64,000 nucleotides of DNA from a virus. Position 1 is the first letter of the stretch, and each line of letters begins with the position of its first letter. This document shows, piece by piece, positions 42,758-54,380 of this stretch. The stretch covers positions 1 to 64,000 of IMG/VR virus record IMGVR_UViG_3300042304_001334; one strand, given 5' to 3'. A model generated the notes under the pieces. The model was not told where the DNA came from and ran no database searches. It saw only the letters and a program-made list of their open reading frames with translations. The position numbers and the translations under genes are program-made.

Positions 42758-45700
42758 TTATGATACCCTTGCAAGCGCCTTTGACACCAACGTTCCATCC
42801 ATGTGTACAGCAACTGCACCACCCGTCAGTAGGTTTATTAGCTCATCAAGCTTTGATATCATCGCATCAGAATTATTATTAACATTAACTACAGGTGTTG
42901 CACCACCGGCTGCGCCGCCAAGTGAGGATATTGCATCTGTTAATTTATCTATACTCATCTTGAGTTCATCCATATTTACGATTTCAACCATATGATTGAT
43001 CTTACTTTCTACTATTGATTTTGCTTCAATAGCAGCCTTTGATGCGTCTTTTCCTCCAAAAAATCTACCAATTAATGGAATGCTACTTACAAATTCCATA
43101 ACTTTTTTGAATGCTGAAGAAAGCGTGTTGAAAATTGTTCCACCCATTGATTTTATTGCATCCACAATCATACGCGCTATGCCAACGTTTTTTCCAAATA
43201 TTCCAGACACAAAATTCATAACTTTTTTGAACGGACTTGATAGCGCATCAAATATCATTGAACCAACAGATGTAAGTCCGTCAACTAGCATAAGTCCAAT
43301 TCCGGATGGGGATTCTCCAGCAAGTTGGGAATCGCTTTTAAACCAACCAAGAAATTTTTTGAATGGCCATTTAAGCACATCAAACACTATGTTTTTAATA
43401 CTGCTAAGTCCATCAACAATCTTATCGGTGAATCCGTCGCCAAATAACTTTCTTGAAATCCATTCCCCAATATCCACAAACACCGAAAGAAATACATCAT
43501 ACAATACCGCCGGAATTGCCACCAGTGCCTTTAGTATTTTTTCACCGGGATTTAAACTGTCGTCGTTCCATAGGTCAATAAATTTGCTGCCAAGTTTATA
43601 TATTGCTTCCAAACCACTGATGACCCAGCCTATAAATGGTACTTTTTTTATTCCAATAGAGAAAATTTTTAAAAATTTTGTTCCAAATTTTCCAAGGAAT
43701 GTGAATAATCTTGCAAAAACTCCACCACCACTGGCAATTCCACCAAAAAATCGAGACACCGCTGTGCCCATATTCTTAAATATAGAAATTATGGTTCCAC
43801 CAAATTCCATGATTTTTGGTCCCAGAATTGATCCAAAAAGATTTTTAATTGATGTAAAAAATATAGAAAATGCATCACCGATGGGTTTTAGTATGGTTTT
43901 TAATGCGGAAACCCTTCCTCCGACATAACCAAAAAACGCAGAAACGCTTCTGCCAATACCAGAGAACATACCAGCACCAGAAAACGCACTGGACAATGCG
44001 GTTTTTAATGCGGAAACCCTTCCTCCGACATAACCAAAAAACGCAGAAACGCTTCTGCCAATACCAGTACCAGAAAACACATTGGAGACTGCAGTTCCAA
44101 TATTTTTGAATGCTGTCCAAATTTGACCAACTCTCAAACTCATGAGTCTAAAATATGCGTTAGTGCGTCCAAGTGTTCCTGTAAAAAAACTCCACCAAAG
44201 ATATATTTTTGCTATTCCGCCCGCTAATTCTCCTAGTTTTTCCATCCATTTGGCGGCGCTTTCTGTGAATTTTGCCACCCCAGCCATCGCCTTTTCCATT
44301 GACATGGCGCTATTGTTTCCGGATCTCAAGGAGCTTCCAATGATATCAAATGGTTTCAACATTCCTTTCACAAATGAAGAAATTAATTTTATTGGTATTA
44401 TAAGCAGTCTAACCGCCGTTATTATAATAGGCATTATAATATTTGCAATTGGAAGCAATGCGTCTGATATATCGGTCCAAATTTGTTTGAAAGAATTTGT
44501 AAGTTTGTTTAATTCGGTCTGACGCATCTGTCTCTTTACAAGTTCTTCTCCTTGCTTTACAAGATCATTTGTTCCAGCCTTTTCATCCTCTCTTAGTTTT
44601 TTCTGCATCGCCATATATTCTTTAAACATTTCTGGGCGTTCTTTTTCTAATGCAGCTAATATTTTTGTCTGATTTTGCTGTTGAATAATTTCGTCAACTG
44701 TCATATGAGCCGCCTTTGCAACTTCTTCTTGTTGTAGAATATCCAACTTATTAAAATCTCCAAGTTTTGAAATTTCTTTCAATGCAAGTTGTCTTGATTT
44801 TACAATGTCTTTTTCAAATGCAGCTCTTCTGGCAGCTTGGAAGTTTAGAGACTTTCCAACCATGGCTGATGCTGTTAATTCAGATGTTATTGAATCTTGA
44901 AAATTTAAAAATCCCCTAGATGACTTTGATAAAGAATTGATGGTTGTTCCAAGTCTTCTGGCTTCAACCGCAGCTCTCATCAAAGCTAAAGGACTTTTTG
45001 ATAAGAATTTTAAAGAGTCTTCGGATGCTTCTGCAATATCCTTCATTACCATAGCAGGAGCAACTCCTCCCATTTCAGCAAGTCGTGCAGCTGCGCCCAT
45101 CATTTGAGTGGCAGTAATTCCAGACGATTTTGATATTGAAGTAAAAATGCTTCTTATCTTGGCAGAATCTTCAACCGATATTCCTAAATTTGCTGCCATT
45201 TGAGCAGTATCTTTTACCATATCTTTGGTTACTATACCAATTACTTGAAATTGATTGGTTAATGCAGATGCTGCTCCATATGCTTCATCCAATCCAACTC
45301 CAATCTGAGCCATTTCAGCATTTACTTCTCTTGCAGAATTATTCAACTCTCTTGTTTGAGAAACTAAAAATCCGGTTTTAATTCTAAATTCTCCGGCTGC
45401 TTTATCCAATTCTTTCCAGCGTTCTAATGAAGCTTGCAATAATGCCAGCCATGCAGTCAATCCACCTTTGGCAACATCCATTACCAATGATTTTATTTTT
45501 CCAAATTCTTTTGATTCTTCAGTGAGTGGTTTTATTAATGCTTCATGAAGTTTGCCCACTTTTTCTGCAAGTTCTTTTCTGTCTGTTTCTGTTCTATATA
45601 TCTTTTCACCAAGGATTAAATTTGCTTTAAGTTTGGTTTCTTGTCGTTGCAATGCAACTAAAATATTATCGCGCATCTCACTTTGAAGCTTTGTATTTTG

Positions 45701-46147
45701 TGTTATCTGTCTTTCTAGTTCAAGAGATTTATCTACCAACATCATAAGCCTCGTTCTCGCACCCTCTTTTTCAACACCTTCACTTTTGTCATCACTTAAA
45801 ATATTTCTCTGTGCCTGTATTCTATCGTTTGTGAGTGTTTTTTCTTGGTCTAAAAATTTAAGCTTTTCTTTAATTTTTTCGGTTTCTCTGCCCAACAGGT
45901 TTGATTGTCGTTTTTTGTTCTCACTGATTTGTTTTTCAATACTTTCATTAAATTGTTTGCTACGCTGCATTCCAGATTCTGCCGATTGCAATGCTTTTGT
46001 TGCATCAAGCCAAACATTTGTTTGTTTTGCCGATTTCTGTATTTCTTCTGTTATACCTCTAAAAGTACGCGAAATATCCTCGGCAGATTCTTTAATCGCT
46101 TCGAGTTTATCGTATGTTTCGTCAGTTATGGTGGGTTCATCAGCCAT
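42758..46147 (-). CDS. Tail tape measure protein
   Basis: An 1129-residue protein: a long N-terminal coiled coil (residues ~1-210, rich in Lys/Glu/Gln), a helical mid region (SAREVNAEMAQIGVGLDEAY, MMGAAARLAEMGGVAPAMVM), several hydrophobic membrane-like segments between ~560 and 950 (IANIIMPIIITAVRLLIIPI), and a Ser/Ala/Gly-rich end. This is the classic layout of tape measures, which set tail length and help DNA entry. Around residues 690-750 an internal 35-residue unit (GIGRSVSAFFGYVGGRVSAL) is duplicated. At about 1.5 angstrom per residue the tail would be near 170 nm. Confidence 0.9.
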   Translation of the reverse strand: MADEPTITDETYDKLEAIKESAEDISRTFRGITEEIQKSAKQTNVWLDATKALQSAESGMQRSKQFNESIEKQISENKKRQSNLLGRETEKIKEKLKFLDQEKTLTNDRIQAQRNILSDDKSEGVEKEGARTRLMMLVDKSLELERQITQNTKLQSEMRDNILVALQRQETKLKANLILGEKIYRTETDRKELAEKVGKLHEALIKPLTEESKEFGKIKSLVMDVAKGGLTAWLALLQASLERWKELDKAAGEFRIKTGFLVSQTRELNNSAREVNAEMAQIGVGLDEAYGAASALTNQFQVIGIVTKDMVKDTAQMAANLGISVEDSAKIRSIFTSISKSSGITATQMMGAAARLAEMGGVAPAMVMKDIAEASEDSLKFLSKSPLALMRAAVEARRLGTTINSLSKSSRGFLNFQDSITSELTASAMVGKSLNFQAARRAAFEKDIVKSRQLALKEISKLGDFNKLDILQQEEVAKAAHMTVDEIIQQQNQTKILAALEKERPEMFKEYMAMQKKLREDEKAGTNDLVKQGEELVKRQMRQTELNKLTNSFKQIWTDISDALLPIANIIMPIIITAVRLLIIPIKLISSFVKGMLKPFDIIGSSLRSGNNSAMSMEKAMAGVAKFTESAAKWMEKLGELAGGIAKIYLWWSFFTGTLGRTNAYFRLMSLRVGQIWTAFKNIGTAVSNVFSGTGIGRSVSAFFGYVGGRVSALKTALSSAFSGAGMFSGIGRSVSAFFGYVGGRVSALKTILKPIGDAFSIFFTSIKNLFGSILGPKIMEFGGTIISIFKNMGTAVSRFFGGIASGGGVFARLFTFLGKFGTKFLKIFSIGIKKVPFIGWVISGLEAIYKLGSKFIDLWNDDSLNPGEKILKALVAIPAVLYDVFLSVFVDIGEWISRKLFGDGFTDKIVDGLSSIKNIVFDVLKWPFKKFLGWFKSDSQLAGESPSGIGLMLVDGLTSVGSMIFDALSSPFKKVMNFVSGIFGKNVGIARMIVDAIKSMGGTIFNTLSSAFKKVMEFVSSIPLIGRFFGGKDASKAAIEAKSIVESKINHMVEIVNMDELKMSIDKLTDAISSLGGAAGGATPVVNVNNNSDAMISKLDELINLLTGGAVAVHMDGTLVSKALARVS
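43895..44067. repeat. 68-bp direct repeat inside the tape measure gene
   Basis: The 68 bases at 43895-43962 recur unchanged at 44000-44067, period 105 bp (35 codons, frame kept). Both copies encode the same SVSAFFGYVGGRV segment. An exact copy means a recent in-frame duplication that lengthened the protein. Confidence 0.9.
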
Positions 46148-46203: not shown

Positions 46204-46440
46204 TTATCGTATAGCTGGACGATGTATTTTTCCAGTAGAATTTTGTCCATTCTCAGAAGACTTGTGCTGATCAGCCTCGTTCTTTTTGGTGTCTGCCAGC
46301 TTTTTTATATAAAATCTTCGCAAATATACAGGCAGAGTATATGCCTCAGAATGACTGAATGCGCCGTTACTATAATAACAGAGGTTAAATACCTCTTCGT
46401 GCAGAGCTATTTTATACTCCAGAGGAAGGCCAAAAGAAGT
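46204..46440 (-). CDS. Frameshift-dependent tail assembly protein extension (gp51-like)
   Basis: An open frame of 78 codons, not starting with any normal start codon, in the +1 frame relative to the end of the gp26-like gene. It reads SFGLPLEYKIALHEEVFNLC, then YYSNGAFSHSEAYTLPVYLR, RFYIKKLADTKKNE, clearly protein-like and similar to the small conserved baseplate/assembly proteins next to gp26 in T4-like phages (E-x-x-F-x-L-x-Y-Y-x-N-G, Y-x-[ML]-P-x-[YW]-L-R-x-F-Y). A +1 slip at TTC TTT TGG (46438-46430; Phe tRNA re-pairing on UUU) would join it to the gp26-like protein. Alternatives: start at AUA (46410, behind GGAG) or CTG, or a sequencing indel. Confidence 0.65.
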   Translation of the reverse strand, partial: TSFGLPLEYKIALHEEVFNLCYYSNGAFSHSEAYTLPVYLRRFYIKKLADTKKNEADQHKSSENGQNSTGKIHRPAIR

Positions 46441-47263
46441 CTACACCCAATGGCAATGCCATCCGCTCGTTGTGTCCGCACGCGGTACATGTAAAATCAA
46501 ATGTCATGTCCATGTCTGGAGTATTTTGTCTTATATATTTACGAAAAGATATGCTGTCTTTGGCAAGCATATTATCCACAAACTTTTTAATCAATCCTCT
46601 ATCATTGTTTCCATCAATTGCTATAATGGTGTATTTTAAACGCGTGGTCATTTCTGGTGCGTTTGTTTTTGATAGTTTCGCCAAACCTTTCAATTCAGCA
46701 TCAATATCATTTTCATCTTTGTGAGTAAGAAGTCTGTATGTAAGATTCTTTTTAGATATTGGCAGTTCAAAATTAAATGCATTTTCACCTTTTGTATGTT
46801 TGGTAAAATCAAATTCTTTGAACTTTACATCTCCAAGATTAATTTCTACTTCATTTTCTTCTCCGCATTTTGGACATGTAATTTTTGCAGAATATTTATC
46901 TCCATACGCCAATCTACGTGCTGCAACTAATATAGCATTTTTGTCACCAACCACAATATCATCAAGTTTAACATTTGGAGTAACAATGATTGCTTTCAAC
47001 AATTCATCAAGTACAACTCCCTTTTTAATAAGATTTTGGTTGGTAAGAATATCTTCTTCTCTTGCGGTCATGTGTTTCAATTGAATGCGACCTGATGACA
47101 ATGGAGAAGATAATGGATAAAAATAGCCTTCTGATGGAATGTCTATATATTCAACTGGAAAATCCAACTTTGTTTCGGCTGGCGTGACTGCCTGTTGGTT
47201 TTGTGTATGCACTGATGTTGAAACAGGTGCTGCTTGTCTTGATACTGGTATTGTATTATCCAT
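46412..47263 (-). CDS. T4 gp26-like baseplate/tail assembly protein with zinc ribbon
   Basis: A 283-residue protein with a disordered Pro/Gln N-terminus, then VEYIDIPSEGYFYPLSSPLS, GRIQLKHMTAREEDILTNQN, the hallmark of the T4 baseplate protein family (PF12322-like). Cys pairs CPKCGEENE (near 133) and CTACGHNE (near 264) would form a zinc ribbon. It ends MALPLGVDFFWPSSGV. Its position just before the tape measure, with an overlapping +1 frame, is that of the frameshifting tail assembly chaperones of other phages. Confidence 0.82.
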   Translation of the reverse strand: MDNTIPVSRQAAPVSTSVHTQNQQAVTPAETKLDFPVEYIDIPSEGYFYPLSSPLSSGRIQLKHMTAREEDILTNQNLIKKGVVLDELLKAIIVTPNVKLDDIVVGDKNAILVAARRLAYGDKYSAKITCPKCGEENEVEINLGDVKFKEFDFTKHTKGENAFNFELPISKKNLTYRLLTHKDENDIDAELKGLAKLSKTNAPEMTTRLKYTIIAIDGNNDRGLIKKFVDNMLAKDSISFRKYIRQNTPDMDMTFDFTCTACGHNERMALPLGVDFFWPSSGV

Positions 47264-50514: not shown

Positions 50515-51012
50515 TTAAAATTGCAGAATACAATAGTCCATGCTCAGTGTGACACTTATTGTCAACGCATCTCCTGCACTTGACCAATCCAGCGCAGTTG
50601 CATTGAAATCAACTTGTGAAGGAAACGCACCCTTGATGTCCCACTTTTCAACAATATCTCCAACAGGACCAAGAACTTGAATTTGTACGTCCTTCTTGTA
50701 CATGTCGGCATACCCGTTGCGACCAGTGACAGATTCATGTGCCAGACGCACCCATTCCATGCATGCTTGAGCAGCAGACGGAACGATTGGATCATACAAA
50801 GTGATATTAATGTCCTGCCATTCACTCTTGCCTTTCAACTTGCGCTTCAAATTGATATGATCCATTGTTATAACACCAACGTTGATATTGGGACGACCGG
50901 CTGCTTTTATAGTATACGCGGGTATACCGTCGATATTCATTATGAAACGATTGGCCACTTTTGGCTCAAATGCTGTAAAGAAAATTTGATTTTGGTCTAT
51001 TAGTTCTGCCAT
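50515..51012 (-). CDS. 19: Tail tube protein (T4 gp19-like)
   Basis: A 165-residue protein matching gp19-type tube subunits: ANRFIMNIDGIPAYTIKAAG, a loop with KLKGKSEWQDINITLYDPIV, ACMEWVRLAHESVTGRNGYA, and a final strand pair (GDALTISVTLSMDYCILQF). Length agrees with T4 gp19 (163). It forms the inner tail tube through which DNA passes. It stands alone between two terminators/leader regions, so is transcribed separately, as expected for an abundant protein. Confidence 0.93.
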   Translation of the reverse strand: MAELIDQNQIFFTAFEPKVANRFIMNIDGIPAYTIKAAGRPNINVGVITMDHINLKRKLKGKSEWQDINITLYDPIVPSAAQACMEWVRLAHESVTGRNGYADMYKKDVQIQVLGPVGDIVEKWDIKGAFPSQVDFNATALDWSSAGDALTISVTLSMDYCILQF

Positions 51013-51603: not shown

Positions 51604-51696
51604 TTTAATATAGTACAAATAGTATTGACTATACCAATCAAATGTATAACAATAAATATTGTCAACTAATAACGGTTGATGCAACAAAAGAAAAAT

Positions 51697-51912
51697 ATGA
51701 AAAAGTATATCCTATTAGCACTAGCATCAGTATTGTCAGTTGTAGCCGCAGAAAAGAAAGAACGCCCGCCGCTGACTGATGAGCAAAAAGCAATCGTCGC
51801 AAAGTATGACACAAACAAGGATGGTAAATTGGACAAAGAAGAACGAGCAAAGATTACACCAGAAGATGCAGCAAAGTTGCCGCCTCCTGCCGCTGGTAAA
51901 AAGAAGCAATAA
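51697..51912 (+). CDS. Small secreted EF-hand protein
   Basis: A 71-residue protein. From the ATG at 51697 it starts MKKYILLALASVLSVVAAEK, a signal peptide with A-x-A-type cleavage. Then PPLTDEQKAIVAKYDTNKDG and KLDKEERAKITPEDA: an EF-hand loop D-x-N-x-D-G-x-L-x-x-x-E that should bind calcium. Such short DEQKAxxxKYDxNKDGKLDxEE proteins are common in Verrucomicrobia/Planctomycetes-type bacteria. It is followed by its own terminator and stands alone on the plus strand, like a moron gene taken from a host. Earlier in-frame starts (51676 TTG, 51679 ATG) would spoil the signal peptide. Confidence 0.75.
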   Translation: MKKYILLALASVLSVVAAEKKERPPLTDEQKAIVAKYDTNKDGKLDKEERAKITPEDAAKLPPPAAGKKKQ

Positions 51913-51973: not shown

Positions 51974-53719
51974 TTACTTTGAAAGTTTAGAAGCTATTCT
52001 TGCTATATCGCTATACACAGCATCATCATCTTTTTTGTATCTCGATGATATATCTTCAATATAAGGGTTTATGTCTGGATATATACCAAACTCAATTGCA
52101 TACGATAATATTTGTTTTGCCGCGTTTTCAATTTCTCGTTCATACCCATCGTTGTTCATGGCAATTTCTTTTACAGCCTTTGGAACGGTTGCATATCTAC
52201 CAAATAAGAAAATATAAGTCAGAACATCGGAAGGACCAAACCCACTAACTGCTCTATATGCATCCTTTAATGTGGCACCGGCTTCCAAAGTATCGTCAAT
52301 CAGCAATACATTTGCTCCTTTTATTTTCTTGATCAAGTCAATAGAGTACCCTTCCGCAACAGTGTAAAACATGCTATAATACATTCTATTGGTAGCACCG
52401 ACTTTTTTGATTTCAAATTCTTCTTCTCCGTGATTTTTTTTCTTAGACTCTAAATCTCGAATGACATATTCAAAATATGACAGATCTTTTTTTAGGCTCT
52501 TGGCTCGTTTGTACTGATGCCAAAATACGGGTGACAATTGTACGTTTTTCCATTTGTCTTTTTTCAAAAATCCTTCCAATACCACTGCATTTGGAACATA
52601 TCGTTTAACTTCATTTGCAACGACGTAATTTAATTTGCTTTTTGATCCAAAAGGAATGATTACACTTATCTTTGATGCATCATACACTTCGGAGTTGAAC
52701 AATCTTTCGACGGATATTTTAACCAAATTTCTTACAATCGATTTGCTGCCAGCACCGTGCTCTGGGTGCTTGACTGCATGGCGCAAATTTACAAGAGCAG
52801 TTTCCATATAATCATCGTCGCCGGCGTCTTTCATCGCCTGCACTGCTTTTGGCATGACCCTGAATGCAGCGTAAACTTTCATTCCATGTACTGTAAAAAA
52901 TTTACGTGCATCATCGTCGTCGGTAGGAACCAATCCAAATTCACCCTCATCTTCGTCGGCCATCCAAGTCACAGATTTTCCATCCGGCGAAGATATACCG
53001 TCGTCAATTTTCTCTAATTCATTCACGCTCATCTTTTTATCATAGTTCTTGGCTATATTGTCTTTGATTTTATCCAAATATCCATGAGCACGAATAATCT
53101 TGAATACTATATTTTCTTCACTCAATTCGCCGCCACTATCCAAACCAGATTGACGATACTTATAAAGCTTGTCCAACAGACTCTTTAGAGCAGTTTCATC
53201 ATGTTTTGACAATAGTGTTGTTATCTTCTTTTTGTATTCTTTATACTTCTTTTTTATAAGTTCTTTGTTGAAAGTTGGACTTTCTTTAACAGGTTCTTGA
53301 ATCCAATCATTTTTATATACACTATATGAACTGGCTGAAGTAGGTACATGTGCTGTGTCTTGAACATATATTTCAACATCATGACCTTTCATGGTAATAT
53401 TATGTTTGTTGTTCCAACCCACTTTTATAGCATCAAATAATGTTTGAGCATCATCTGCTGTCATATCTAAATCTTTAAAATCTGTGACAACATGCAAGTC
53501 AATGTCACTATAATCTGTCCAATTATAATTGGTGATGCTGCCAATGACAACAATATCATATATTTTTATATGTATATTATTTTCTTTCTTGAGATTGGCC
53601 ACAAAATCTTGCGCGATTTTTAATAATCCTTTGCGCACTATATCATCAAGTTTGGCACCATCTTCATTGATGTTCCAAAGTTTTGGACAAAGATTATTGC
53701 GATATAAAGGATATTTCAT
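51974..53719 (-). CDS. Nucleotidyltransferase-phosphoribosyltransferase fusion protein
   Basis: Start at 53719 (MKYPLYRNNLCPKLWNINED); the frame is open for 50 more codons but these overlap the HAD gene. A Pol-beta-type nucleotidyltransferase domain has VVIGSITNYNWTDYSDIDLH (G60-S61...D72-x-D74) and a third acidic strand GHDVEIYVQD. A helical region follows (~190-310). In the C-terminal third, ANVLLIDDTLEAGATLKDAY (about 469-488) is a PRPP-binding loop of phosphoribosyltransferases. The 581-residue combination is unusual. Possible roles include nucleotide salvage or modification of a host molecule; the reaction is unknown. Confidence 0.65.
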   Translation of the reverse strand: MKYPLYRNNLCPKLWNINEDGAKLDDIVRKGLLKIAQDFVANLKKENNIHIKIYDIVVIGSITNYNWTDYSDIDLHVVTDFKDLDMTADDAQTLFDAIKVGWNNKHNITMKGHDVEIYVQDTAHVPTSASSYSVYKNDWIQEPVKESPTFNKELIKKKYKEYKKKITTLLSKHDETALKSLLDKLYKYRQSGLDSGGELSEENIVFKIIRAHGYLDKIKDNIAKNYDKKMSVNELEKIDDGISSPDGKSVTWMADEDEGEFGLVPTDDDDARKFFTVHGMKVYAAFRVMPKAVQAMKDAGDDDYMETALVNLRHAVKHPEHGAGSKSIVRNLVKISVERLFNSEVYDASKISVIIPFGSKSKLNYVVANEVKRYVPNAVVLEGFLKKDKWKNVQLSPVFWHQYKRAKSLKKDLSYFEYVIRDLESKKKNHGEEEFEIKKVGATNRMYYSMFYTVAEGYSIDLIKKIKGANVLLIDDTLEAGATLKDAYRAVSGFGPSDVLTYIFLFGRYATVPKAVKEIAMNNDGYEREIENAAKQILSYAIEFGIYPDINPYIEDISSRYKKDDDAVYSDIARIASKLSK

Positions 53720-53789
53720 TTTTTTAAAGCCATAACGTCGGTGATATGAAACTGTTCTTTTATCAAAATAGATCTCAGTTTTAAATTGC

Positions 53790-54380
53790 TCATATTGAGA
53801 GTATATCTCTAATTTTTTGTATACTGCTCGCTGTGTCTGTGTGATGAATGGCAATGTTGCCAGACACATTTTCCCATGCTGTTATGTTATCCGGCCTGCC
53901 GTCTTCTACGTCACCGGGACCGGTGTCATCCAACAACACATTCATAACATTCGGAATTTTTGTAGCATAGTTTGATTTCAAATAACCAGAGGTTGCAATT
54001 CTTACCTCAACCGTTGAATCAATATATTTTCTTATCCAAGCTTCTTTTTGTTTTTTAACATTGGAACCTTGTCCCGCGCTTAGTATTATGGGCGTCGGAT
54101 TTTTAAAATTATCTTTTACAAAGTCCCACAAAATTTTTGCGTCTGGTAGAGGATCTAGATTCAACCAAAAATTTGGATTTTTTTCTACAACATCCCAAAA
54201 AGCATTTTTTCCATTTTTTTTAGAATATTCTTTTGGTGTCATTGTTGTTATTTTTTTGAACCCACCATCCAAATCAACGAGAACTCCGTCCATATCTACG
54301 TATAATTGAATTTTTAATGGATTTTCACCATCTTCTTTGGCCACCGCTTCTTTCAAGATATTCTTCAGTAATATATGCAT
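53790..54380 (-). CDS. HAD-family 5'(3')-deoxyribonucleotidase-like protein with targeting-like N-terminus
   Basis: A 196-residue protein. YVDMDGVLVDLDGGF (D29-x-D31) is HAD motif I of the nucleotidase group; PTPIILSAGQGSNVKKQKEA supplies motif II and the Lys; MNVLLDDTGPGDVEDGRPDN gives the acidic motif IV. The first ~18 residues (MHILLKNILKEAVAKEDGEN) precede the catalytic domain and contain L-K-E, like the putative capsid-targeting segments elsewhere. It would dephosphorylate nucleotides or another phosphorylated substrate; it sits beside the nucleotidyltransferase-PRTase gene. Confidence 0.75.
   Translation of the reverse strand: MHILLKNILKEAVAKEDGENPLKIQLYVDMDGVLVDLDGGFKKITTMTPKEYSKKNGKNAFWDVVEKNPNFWLNLDPLPDAKILWDFVKDNFKNPTPIILSAGQGSNVKKQKEAWIRKYIDSTVEVRIATSGYLKSNYATKIPNVMNVLLDDTGPGDVEDGRPDNITAWENVSGNIAIHHTDTASSIQKIRDILSI

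What the first reader, a model, noticed from the sequence alone, without database searches (positions are those of the whole stretch)
46204..46441. Hidden conserved ORF in the +1 frame of the gp26-like gene: likely programmed frameshift before the tape measure
A 78-codon frame with clearly protein-like sequence starts inside the last codons of the gp26-like gene and ends just before the tape measure gene. It has no standard start codon and is shifted +1. UUC UUU UGG near the overlap allows a Phe tRNA to re-pair on UUU after a +1 slip. The layout (chaperone, overlapping frame, tape measure) parallels lambda G/GT. An AUA codon six nt after GGAG is another possible start.
Basis: partly seen in the sequence, partly recalled or inferred. 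Interest (0 to 1): 0.7.

Follow-up and report, generated by a model that had tools for sequence, protein, structure and literature searches.

The report
Forward ribosome slip makes tail chaperone
In a large family of contractile-tailed phages, ribosomes appear to skip one base near the end of a tail-chaperone gene to make a second, longer chaperone just before the tail-length ruler gene; the skip site is conserved in over 100 lineages and usually sits right behind a small RNA hairpin that probably helps it work.

Summary
The 78-codon frame lacks a start codon and begins two codons before its homology. In 208 fetched loci with the gp26-like (PF12322) gene, 180 (122 non-redundant) have the same overlapping +1 frame. 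The slip site is YUU followed by UGG, UAC or CGC in almost all of them. The phase of nucleotide conservation switches by +1 at the site. Ka/Ks of the hidden frame is 0.01-0.13. In three lineages the slip arrangement is gone and a second gene encodes the same two domains fused in frame (RSFFGL, EIFGI), with the junction a +1 slip predicts (VDFFGL). Best reading: short (TAC-N) and long (TAC-NC) tail assembly chaperones, as in lambda G/GT, but made by +1 slippage in the T4 gp26 family, where T4 itself uses two genes. New here: a hairpin just upstream of the slip site in most lineages (mean -6.9 kcal/mol; well below synonymous recodings), resembling designed upstream hairpins shown to stimulate +1 shifting on 70S ribosomes. 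Its function is inferred, and in the window it lies further upstream than usual.

The parts
46412..47263 (-). gp26-like gene = short tail assembly chaperone (TAC-N), 283 aa
   Evidence: PF12322 T4_baseplate 63.5 bits against cutoff 24.5; PHROG 150 baseplate hub
46207..46431 (-). TAC-C domain coding part in frame +1 (GGC CTT CCT...; GLPLEYKIALHEEVF...), read after the slip; stop at 46204-46206
   Evidence: homologs in 180 loci; Ka/Ks 0.01-0.13
46429..46438 (-). slip site UUC UUU U GGC: P-site Phe codon UUU (46435-46433) re-pairs on UUU, skipping one U
   Evidence: P-site codon UUU 110 or CUU 10 of 122 non-redundant loci
46441..46443 (-). TAG that closes the +1 frame two codons before the homology; excludes upstream initiation in that frame
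   Evidence: sequence
46447..46465 (-). upstream hairpin (stem GAUGGC/GCCAUU plus an outer C-G pair), -9.3 kcal/mol; its 3' edge is 12-14 nt before the P-site codon, further away than in most relatives
   Evidence: for this one sequence z = -1.2 to -1.3, not significant alone
46412..46414 (-). TAA stop that ends the short form six codons after the P-site codon
   Evidence: sequence
42758..46147 (-). tape measure protein gene, 1129 aa
   Evidence: PHROG 58, E 9e-4; position
50515..51012 (-). tail tube gene (gp19-like) upstream in the same tail cluster
   Evidence: PF06841; PHROG 4542, E 1e-25

Best explanation
The gp26-like gene and the hidden frame encode two forms of one tail assembly chaperone. 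Most ribosomes finish the gp26-like frame and make the short form (TAC-N). A fraction, with peptidyl-tRNA-Phe on UUU (46435-46433) and UGG in the A site, move one base forward; the tRNA re-pairs on the overlapping UUU and translation continues GGC CUU CCU..., adding 75 residues to give the long form (TAC-NC, junction ...VDFFGLPLEYK...). By analogy with lambda G/GT, the shared part coats the tape measure and the rare C-terminal domain recruits the tube subunit. A hairpin directly upstream of the site, present in most relatives, probably refolds behind the ribosome and favours forward slippage. Shown by sequence: frames, conservation, slip-site constraint, selection, natural fusions, excess of predicted structure. 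Inferred: that slippage happens and at what rate, that the hairpin stimulates it, and the chaperone role.
For: (1) 180/208 loci, 122 non-redundant, share the +1 overlap. (2) P-site codon is UUU or CUU in 120/122; the P-site Phe codon is never UUC, although 23% of Phe codons elsewhere in these genes are, and the neighbouring Phe codon is UUC in 11. (3) 64/122 have no ATG/GTG/TTG in the +1 frame before the homology. (4) Conservation phase flips at the site: information by 0-frame codon position 0.60/0.88/0.18 before and 0.39/0.53/0.99 after; in the 150 nt downstream there are 0 stops in +1 against 606 in frame 0. (5) In-frame fused paralogs align without a gap across the predicted junction. (6) The lineages with fused paralogs nest inside the frameshift clade, one as sister of a frameshift lineage at 100/99 support. 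(7) The same +1 arrangement is seen in Bacillus SP-15, Listeria LIS04, Streptococcus SagM-GXN1, Rhodothermus RM378 and Streptomyces BRock and pSt2308. (8) A model of a natural fusion best matches PDB 3klu, B. subtilis YqbN, Z 6.2; that YqbN is in a tail chaperone family is my own knowledge.
Against: No protein or ribosome-profiling data. No known +1 stimulator (stop or rare codon in the A site, E-site-adjacent Shine-Dalgarno) is present. The slip-site Ts are also constrained because the +1 frame would read Phe there. 58/122 loci do have a possible start codon in the open +1 stretch. Fixed-column covariation of the hairpin was inconclusive, and in the window itself the hairpin lies further upstream than usual.
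Confidence: 0.91

Rival explanations
1. The hidden frame is a separate small gene, started at a non-AUG codon (AUA or other) or by reinitiation after the gp26-like stop.
For: A purine-rich GGAG precedes an AUA; in 58 of 122 lineages an ATG/GTG/TTG exists in the open +1 stretch; Mel-JY01 is annotated with such a start.
Against: Conserved residues lie upstream of the AUA, right from the slip site; 64 of 122 lineages have no canonical start there and the window has only two codons; no +1-phase conservation upstream of the site; paralogs carry the domain fused to the N-domain.
Confidence: 0.05
2. The shift is -2 instead of +1 (same resulting frame, one extra residue).
For: Same frame; -2 slips are known in some tail chaperone genes (own knowledge: Mu-like phages).
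Against: In the window a -2 slip would put tRNA-Phe on UCU (middle-base mismatch), while +1 re-pairing is good in every lineage; natural fusions align without an extra residue.
Confidence: 0.03
3. Transcriptional slippage on a T run makes a mixture of mRNAs.
For: Many relatives have runs of seven T.
Against: The window has only four T and the CUU lineages only three, shorter than runs known to cause polymerase slippage (own knowledge); the pattern is conserved without the long run.
Confidence: 0.01
4. Assembly or sequencing indel that splits one gene.
For: One contig (L059) has the frames joined by loss of one T.
Against: L059 also has another homopolymer indel upstream; 180 loci from independent assemblies share the same split, including isolates.
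Confidence: 0.005

Closest known systems
Lambda gpG/gpGT and other frameshifted tail assembly chaperones
   Same: Two overlapping frames between tail tube and tape measure genes; [quoted passage not shown] short form plus rarer long form (PMC5009743).
   Different: Protein family is PF12322 (T4 gp26), the slip is +1 on YUU instead of -1, and the predicted RNA structure is upstream of the site.
T4 gp26 and gp51
   Same: T4 gp51 and gp26 both show weak similarity to the family profile (gp51 E 4e-5, gp26 0.0035).
   Different: T4 uses two separate genes. Vladimirov et al. 2022 (Virology 566:9, not readable here) is cited for T4-like phages carrying a short and a fused long gene (PMC10885494). The window has one gene with a slip.
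E. coli prfB (RF2) and influenza PA-X +1 frameshift sites
   Same: P-site tRNA on CUU or UUU re-pairs one base forward; UUU_CGU of PA-X (PMC3498833, title) is also the site in phage SagM-GXN1.
   Different: No stop or rare codon in the A site; usual A-site codon is UGG or UAC; no adjacent Shine-Dalgarno.
Synthetic upstream hairpins that stimulate +1 shifting on 70S ribosomes (PMC6321510)
   Same: Hairpin just upstream of a CUU/UUU site; effect there grew with hairpin stability.
   Different: [quoted passage not shown] here the hairpin is natural, shorter, and untested.
Vandenendeviridae/Andersonviridae tail chaperone locus (PMC12846349)
   Same: Conserved slip at the end of TAC-N in myoviruses, TAC-C frame missed by annotation.
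   Different: -1 slip at GTTTTT.

Membership tests
PF12322 / T4 gp26-like family (TAC-N) | profile match above the curated cutoff | tested here: met
   63.5 bits against 24.5
Frameshifted tail assembly chaperone (G/GT type) | two overlapping frames directly upstream of the tape measure gene, tail tube gene upstream | tested here: met
Frameshifted tail assembly chaperone (G/GT type) | conserved slippery sequence at the overlap | tested here: met
   UUU or CUU in the P site in 120 of 122 lineages as counted; L122 also has it when read by eye and L003 fits one codon earlier
Frameshifted tail assembly chaperone (G/GT type) | minor fusion protein made at a set ratio and needed for tail assembly | not testable with these tools
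   needs proteomics or genetics
Frameshifted tail assembly chaperone (G/GT type) | -1 slip (usual, not universal, direction) | tested here: not met
   frame is +1 in 180 loci; distant relatives XacN1, PA5oct, Phosso look -1
T4 gp51 (separate long form) | own gene encoding N- and C-domains in one frame | tested here: not met
   no second gp26-like gene in the 68-kb record, which may be a fragment; found in L053, L055, L133
T4 gp51 (separate long form) | C-domain homologous to the hidden frame | tested here: inconclusive
   profile against gp51 C-terminus E 0.27
DUF6760 (PF20546) | profile match above the cutoff | tested here: not met
   15.8 bits against 27, but DUF6760 is the C-part of fused PF12322 genes in two bacterial clusters
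P-site-slippage +1 frameshift sites (prfB, PA-X type) | P-site codon can re-pair one base forward | tested here: met
   UUU to UUU/UUC or CUU to UUU
P-site-slippage +1 frameshift sites (prfB, PA-X type) | slow A-site codon (stop or rare) | tested here: inconclusive
   A site is UGG 92, UAC 23, CGC 3 of 122, never a true stop; host tRNA supply unknown
YqbN/XkdN-like tail chaperone fold | same N-domain fold | tested here: inconclusive
   3klu Z 6.2, rmsd 3.7 over 81 residues, model mean pLDDT 69

The most novel reading that the evidence does not exclude
These phages carry a natural class of +1 frameshift signal with no stop or rare codon and no Shine-Dalgarno: a YUU-U slip site pushed forward by a hairpin that refolds at the mRNA exit side of the ribosome. 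The system has been converted at least twice into the T4-like two-gene arrangement by duplication and fusion.
Probability: 0.5. Interest if true: 0.72.

Novelty: new variant of a known kind. Interest (0 to 1): 0.58.

Why it matters
T4 was listed as the exception to the tail chaperone frameshift rule (PMC5009743). Here the T4 gp26 family itself mostly uses a frameshift, in the +1 direction, and close relatives of the window show the step from slip to duplicated, fused gene. That gives a concrete, testable origin for the T4 arrangement. The upstream hairpin offers many natural sequences for testing how mRNA structure behind the ribosome moves it forward. Practically, the long chaperone is missing or truncated in the annotated records examined, so annotation of these phages can be corrected.

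Tried and rejected
Downstream stimulatory structure: folding z of +5..+70 only slightly below controls. E-site-adjacent Shine-Dalgarno: not conserved; GGAG-like cores lie 20-37 nt upstream, too far, and probably reflect Glu/Gly/Arg codons plus hairpin pairing. Fixed-column covariation: z of up to 5 at the hairpin but up to 9 in control regions because of relatedness, so inconclusive. Reading the window's fusion with the four-letter code TTTT=F breaks at other TTT-T codons, and the structure tool does not accept that code, so I modelled a natural fusion instead. DUF6760 in 14 control genomes: nothing. PDB sequence search: no relative. tRNA genes in the window: none. The Vladimirov 2022 paper is not held, so whether it already reports frameshifts in some T4-like phages could not be checked; two citing papers hint that it may.

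Full report
Observation. The minus-strand gene 47263-46412 matches PF12322 (T4 gp26-like) well above the cutoff and lies in a tail cluster with a gp19-like tube gene and a tape measure gene. A stop-to-stop frame of 78 codons (46440-46204) overlaps its end in frame +1. The frame is closed upstream by TAG at 46443-46441, so only two codons precede its homology and none can be a normal start. The same junction occurs identically in two other metagenome contigs and almost identically in a 297-kb contig.

Relatives. Searches with the hidden frame, the gp26-like protein and a profile brought in loci from IMG/VR, bacterial MAGs and phage records (the last found at least 598 relatives and kept 80). 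Of 208 loci with a gp26-like domain, 180 have the C-domain in an overlapping +1 frame, 11 have it fused in frame to a gp26-like domain (one of these, L059, is an indel-bearing contig), 2 have it in the other frame, and 15 are truncated or too distant for the profile. By eye, several of the last also have a +1 frame (SP-15, LIS04, SagM-GXN1, RM378, BRock, pSt2308) or a -1 frame at T-TTT-TTY (XacN1, PA5oct, Phosso). Homology of their C-parts to the family is weak to fair.

Slip site. In 122 non-redundant loci the codon in the P site is UUU (110) or CUU (10); the two other rows are L003 (UUU CUA, one codon earlier) and L122, a profile-offset row that reads UUU UUC by eye; two further rows (L124, and L206 with GCU UUU UGG) also have UUU before UGG when read by eye. 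The next codon is UGG (92), UAC (23) or CGC (3). The P-site Phe codon is never UUC although UUC is 23% of Phe codons elsewhere in the same genes, while the preceding Phe codon is UUC in 11. These counts are not corrected for kinship, and part of the constraint could come from the +1 frame. Re-pairing by +1 works in all: UUU to UUU, UUU to UUC, or CUU to UUU.

Frame switch. Mean information per nucleotide by 0-frame codon position is 0.60/0.88/0.18 in the 45 nt before the site and 0.39/0.53/0.99 in 12-57 nt after it; in the 150 nt downstream there are no stops in +1 against 606 in frame 0 (the absence of +1 stops is partly by construction). There is no +1-phase conservation before the site, so the hidden frame is not translated there. 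Ka/Ks of the part beyond the gp26 stop is 0.01 to 0.13 in the pairs where Ks is measurable.

Natural fusions. Relatives L053/L113, L133 and L055 carry a first gp26-like gene without a C-domain frame and a second, diverged copy fused in frame to it. The fused copies align without a gap to the product of a +1 slip...RSFFGLTPNYK...EIFGIGPESK and ...VDIFGIKPESK against ...VDFFGLPLEYK. L053/L113 and L055 have lost the slip site itself by synonymous changes (TTC TTC TGG CCA/CCG); L133 keeps TTC TTT TGG CCT but has no C-domain frame. On the tree, L055's first copy is sister to the frameshift lineage L056 (100/99), and the L053/L113/L133 first copies fall next to the window's own group with moderate support. 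This suggests two independent conversions from slip to duplication, much like T4 gp26/gp51; other reconstructions are not excluded. Three bacterial chromosomal clusters that look like contractile injection systems (sheath, gp19 tube, then this gene) carry one fused gene; in two of them the C-part matches Pfam DUF6760.

Hairpin. Folding 24-nt windows across 116 non-redundant loci gives a mean energy of -5.3 kcal/mol at -24..0 relative to the P-site codon, against -0.6 to -2.1 for windows lying within -150 to -18. Synonymous recodings of -27..-3 fold worse (mean z -1.97; 64 of 116 individually at 5%), whereas the two most distant control blocks give z of 0. In 30 nt (-32..-2) 92% of loci reach -3 kcal/mol, usually 6-9 pairs with a 4-5 nt loop and a 3' edge at -3 to -10. 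Sequences differ: ACGGUC-CCUAU-GACCGU, UAUCCC-GUUU-GGGAUA, AUACCG-UUGU-CGGUAU. Chimeras of one lineage's 5' arm with another's 3' arm fold worse (-4.9 against -6.9; 0 of 60 shuffles as low), by about 2 kcal/mol against at most 0.9 in control regions. Dinucleotide shuffles give z -1.02 against about -0.2 in the flanking windows and about -0.6 further downstream. In the window's clade L045 and L051 differ by a double synonymous A-U to U-A change in the stem. The non-frameshift first copies have weaker or displaced hairpins (-0.4 to -5.4), while their frameshift relatives L056, L045 and L052 have -11.6, -7.1 and -8.2 in slightly longer windows. Against this, fixed-column covariation is inconclusive, several distant phages lack a clear hairpin, and the window's own stem ends 12-14 nt before the site. 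Designed upstream hairpins stimulate +1 shifting at CUUUGA on 70S ribosomes in proportion to stability (PMC6321510), which makes a stimulator the natural guess.

Function. TAC role follows from family, position and the lambda G/GT precedent (PMC5009743). A model of the natural fusion L055 (mean pLDDT 69) matches BFVD gp51-like and gp26-like baseplate proteins and, as best PDB chain, 3klu (YqbN, Z 6.2). By my own knowledge YqbN belongs to the XkdN tail chaperone family; Z 6.2 alone is not decisive.

Known or new. Tail chaperone frameshifts are a known kind. Atkins et al. 2016 state that they are widely conserved except in T4. A paper citing Vladimirov et al. 2022 says that some T4-like phages carry a short gene and a fused long gene instead, and another cites it for polyT -1 signals in T4-like phages. 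I could not read that paper, so priority for the frameshift in this family is open. The +1 direction with YUU-U, the upstream hairpin and the slip-to-duplication relatives were not found in the literature that I could search.

Noticed in passing
L100, L107, L108 (XacN1, PA5oct, Phosso): In these jumbo phages the frame after the gp26-like gene is -1 at T-TTT-TTY, so the direction of the slip seems to differ within one protein family.
   Followed up: partly
L212, L214, L216 (genomes G201, G034, G268): Bacterial contractile-injection-like clusters have PF12322 as a single gene with a C-terminal part; in two of them that part matches DUF6760, so DUF6760 may be the C-terminal domain of tail chaperones in general.
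   Followed up: partly
L002, L004, L099, L103: Public phage records annotate the C-domain frame as a truncated or wrongly started small gene, or not at all.
   Followed up: yes
window 42758-46147: Tape measure protein contains two near-identical copies of GIGRSVSAFFGYVGGRVSALKT, seen in the translation only.
   Followed up: no
window 51676-51912 (+): Small signal-peptide-like protein with a weak EF-hand match (NKDGKLDKEE), next to the tail genes on the other strand.
   Followed up: no
window 51974-53869 (-): 631-aa protein combining a weak nucleotidyltransferase-like match and a phosphoribosyltransferase domain at the cutoff.
   Followed up: no
L055 between 3792 and 4689: A further open reading frame that looks like an endonuclease-type (possibly homing) gene lies between the two duplicated chaperone genes (translation only).
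   Followed up: no
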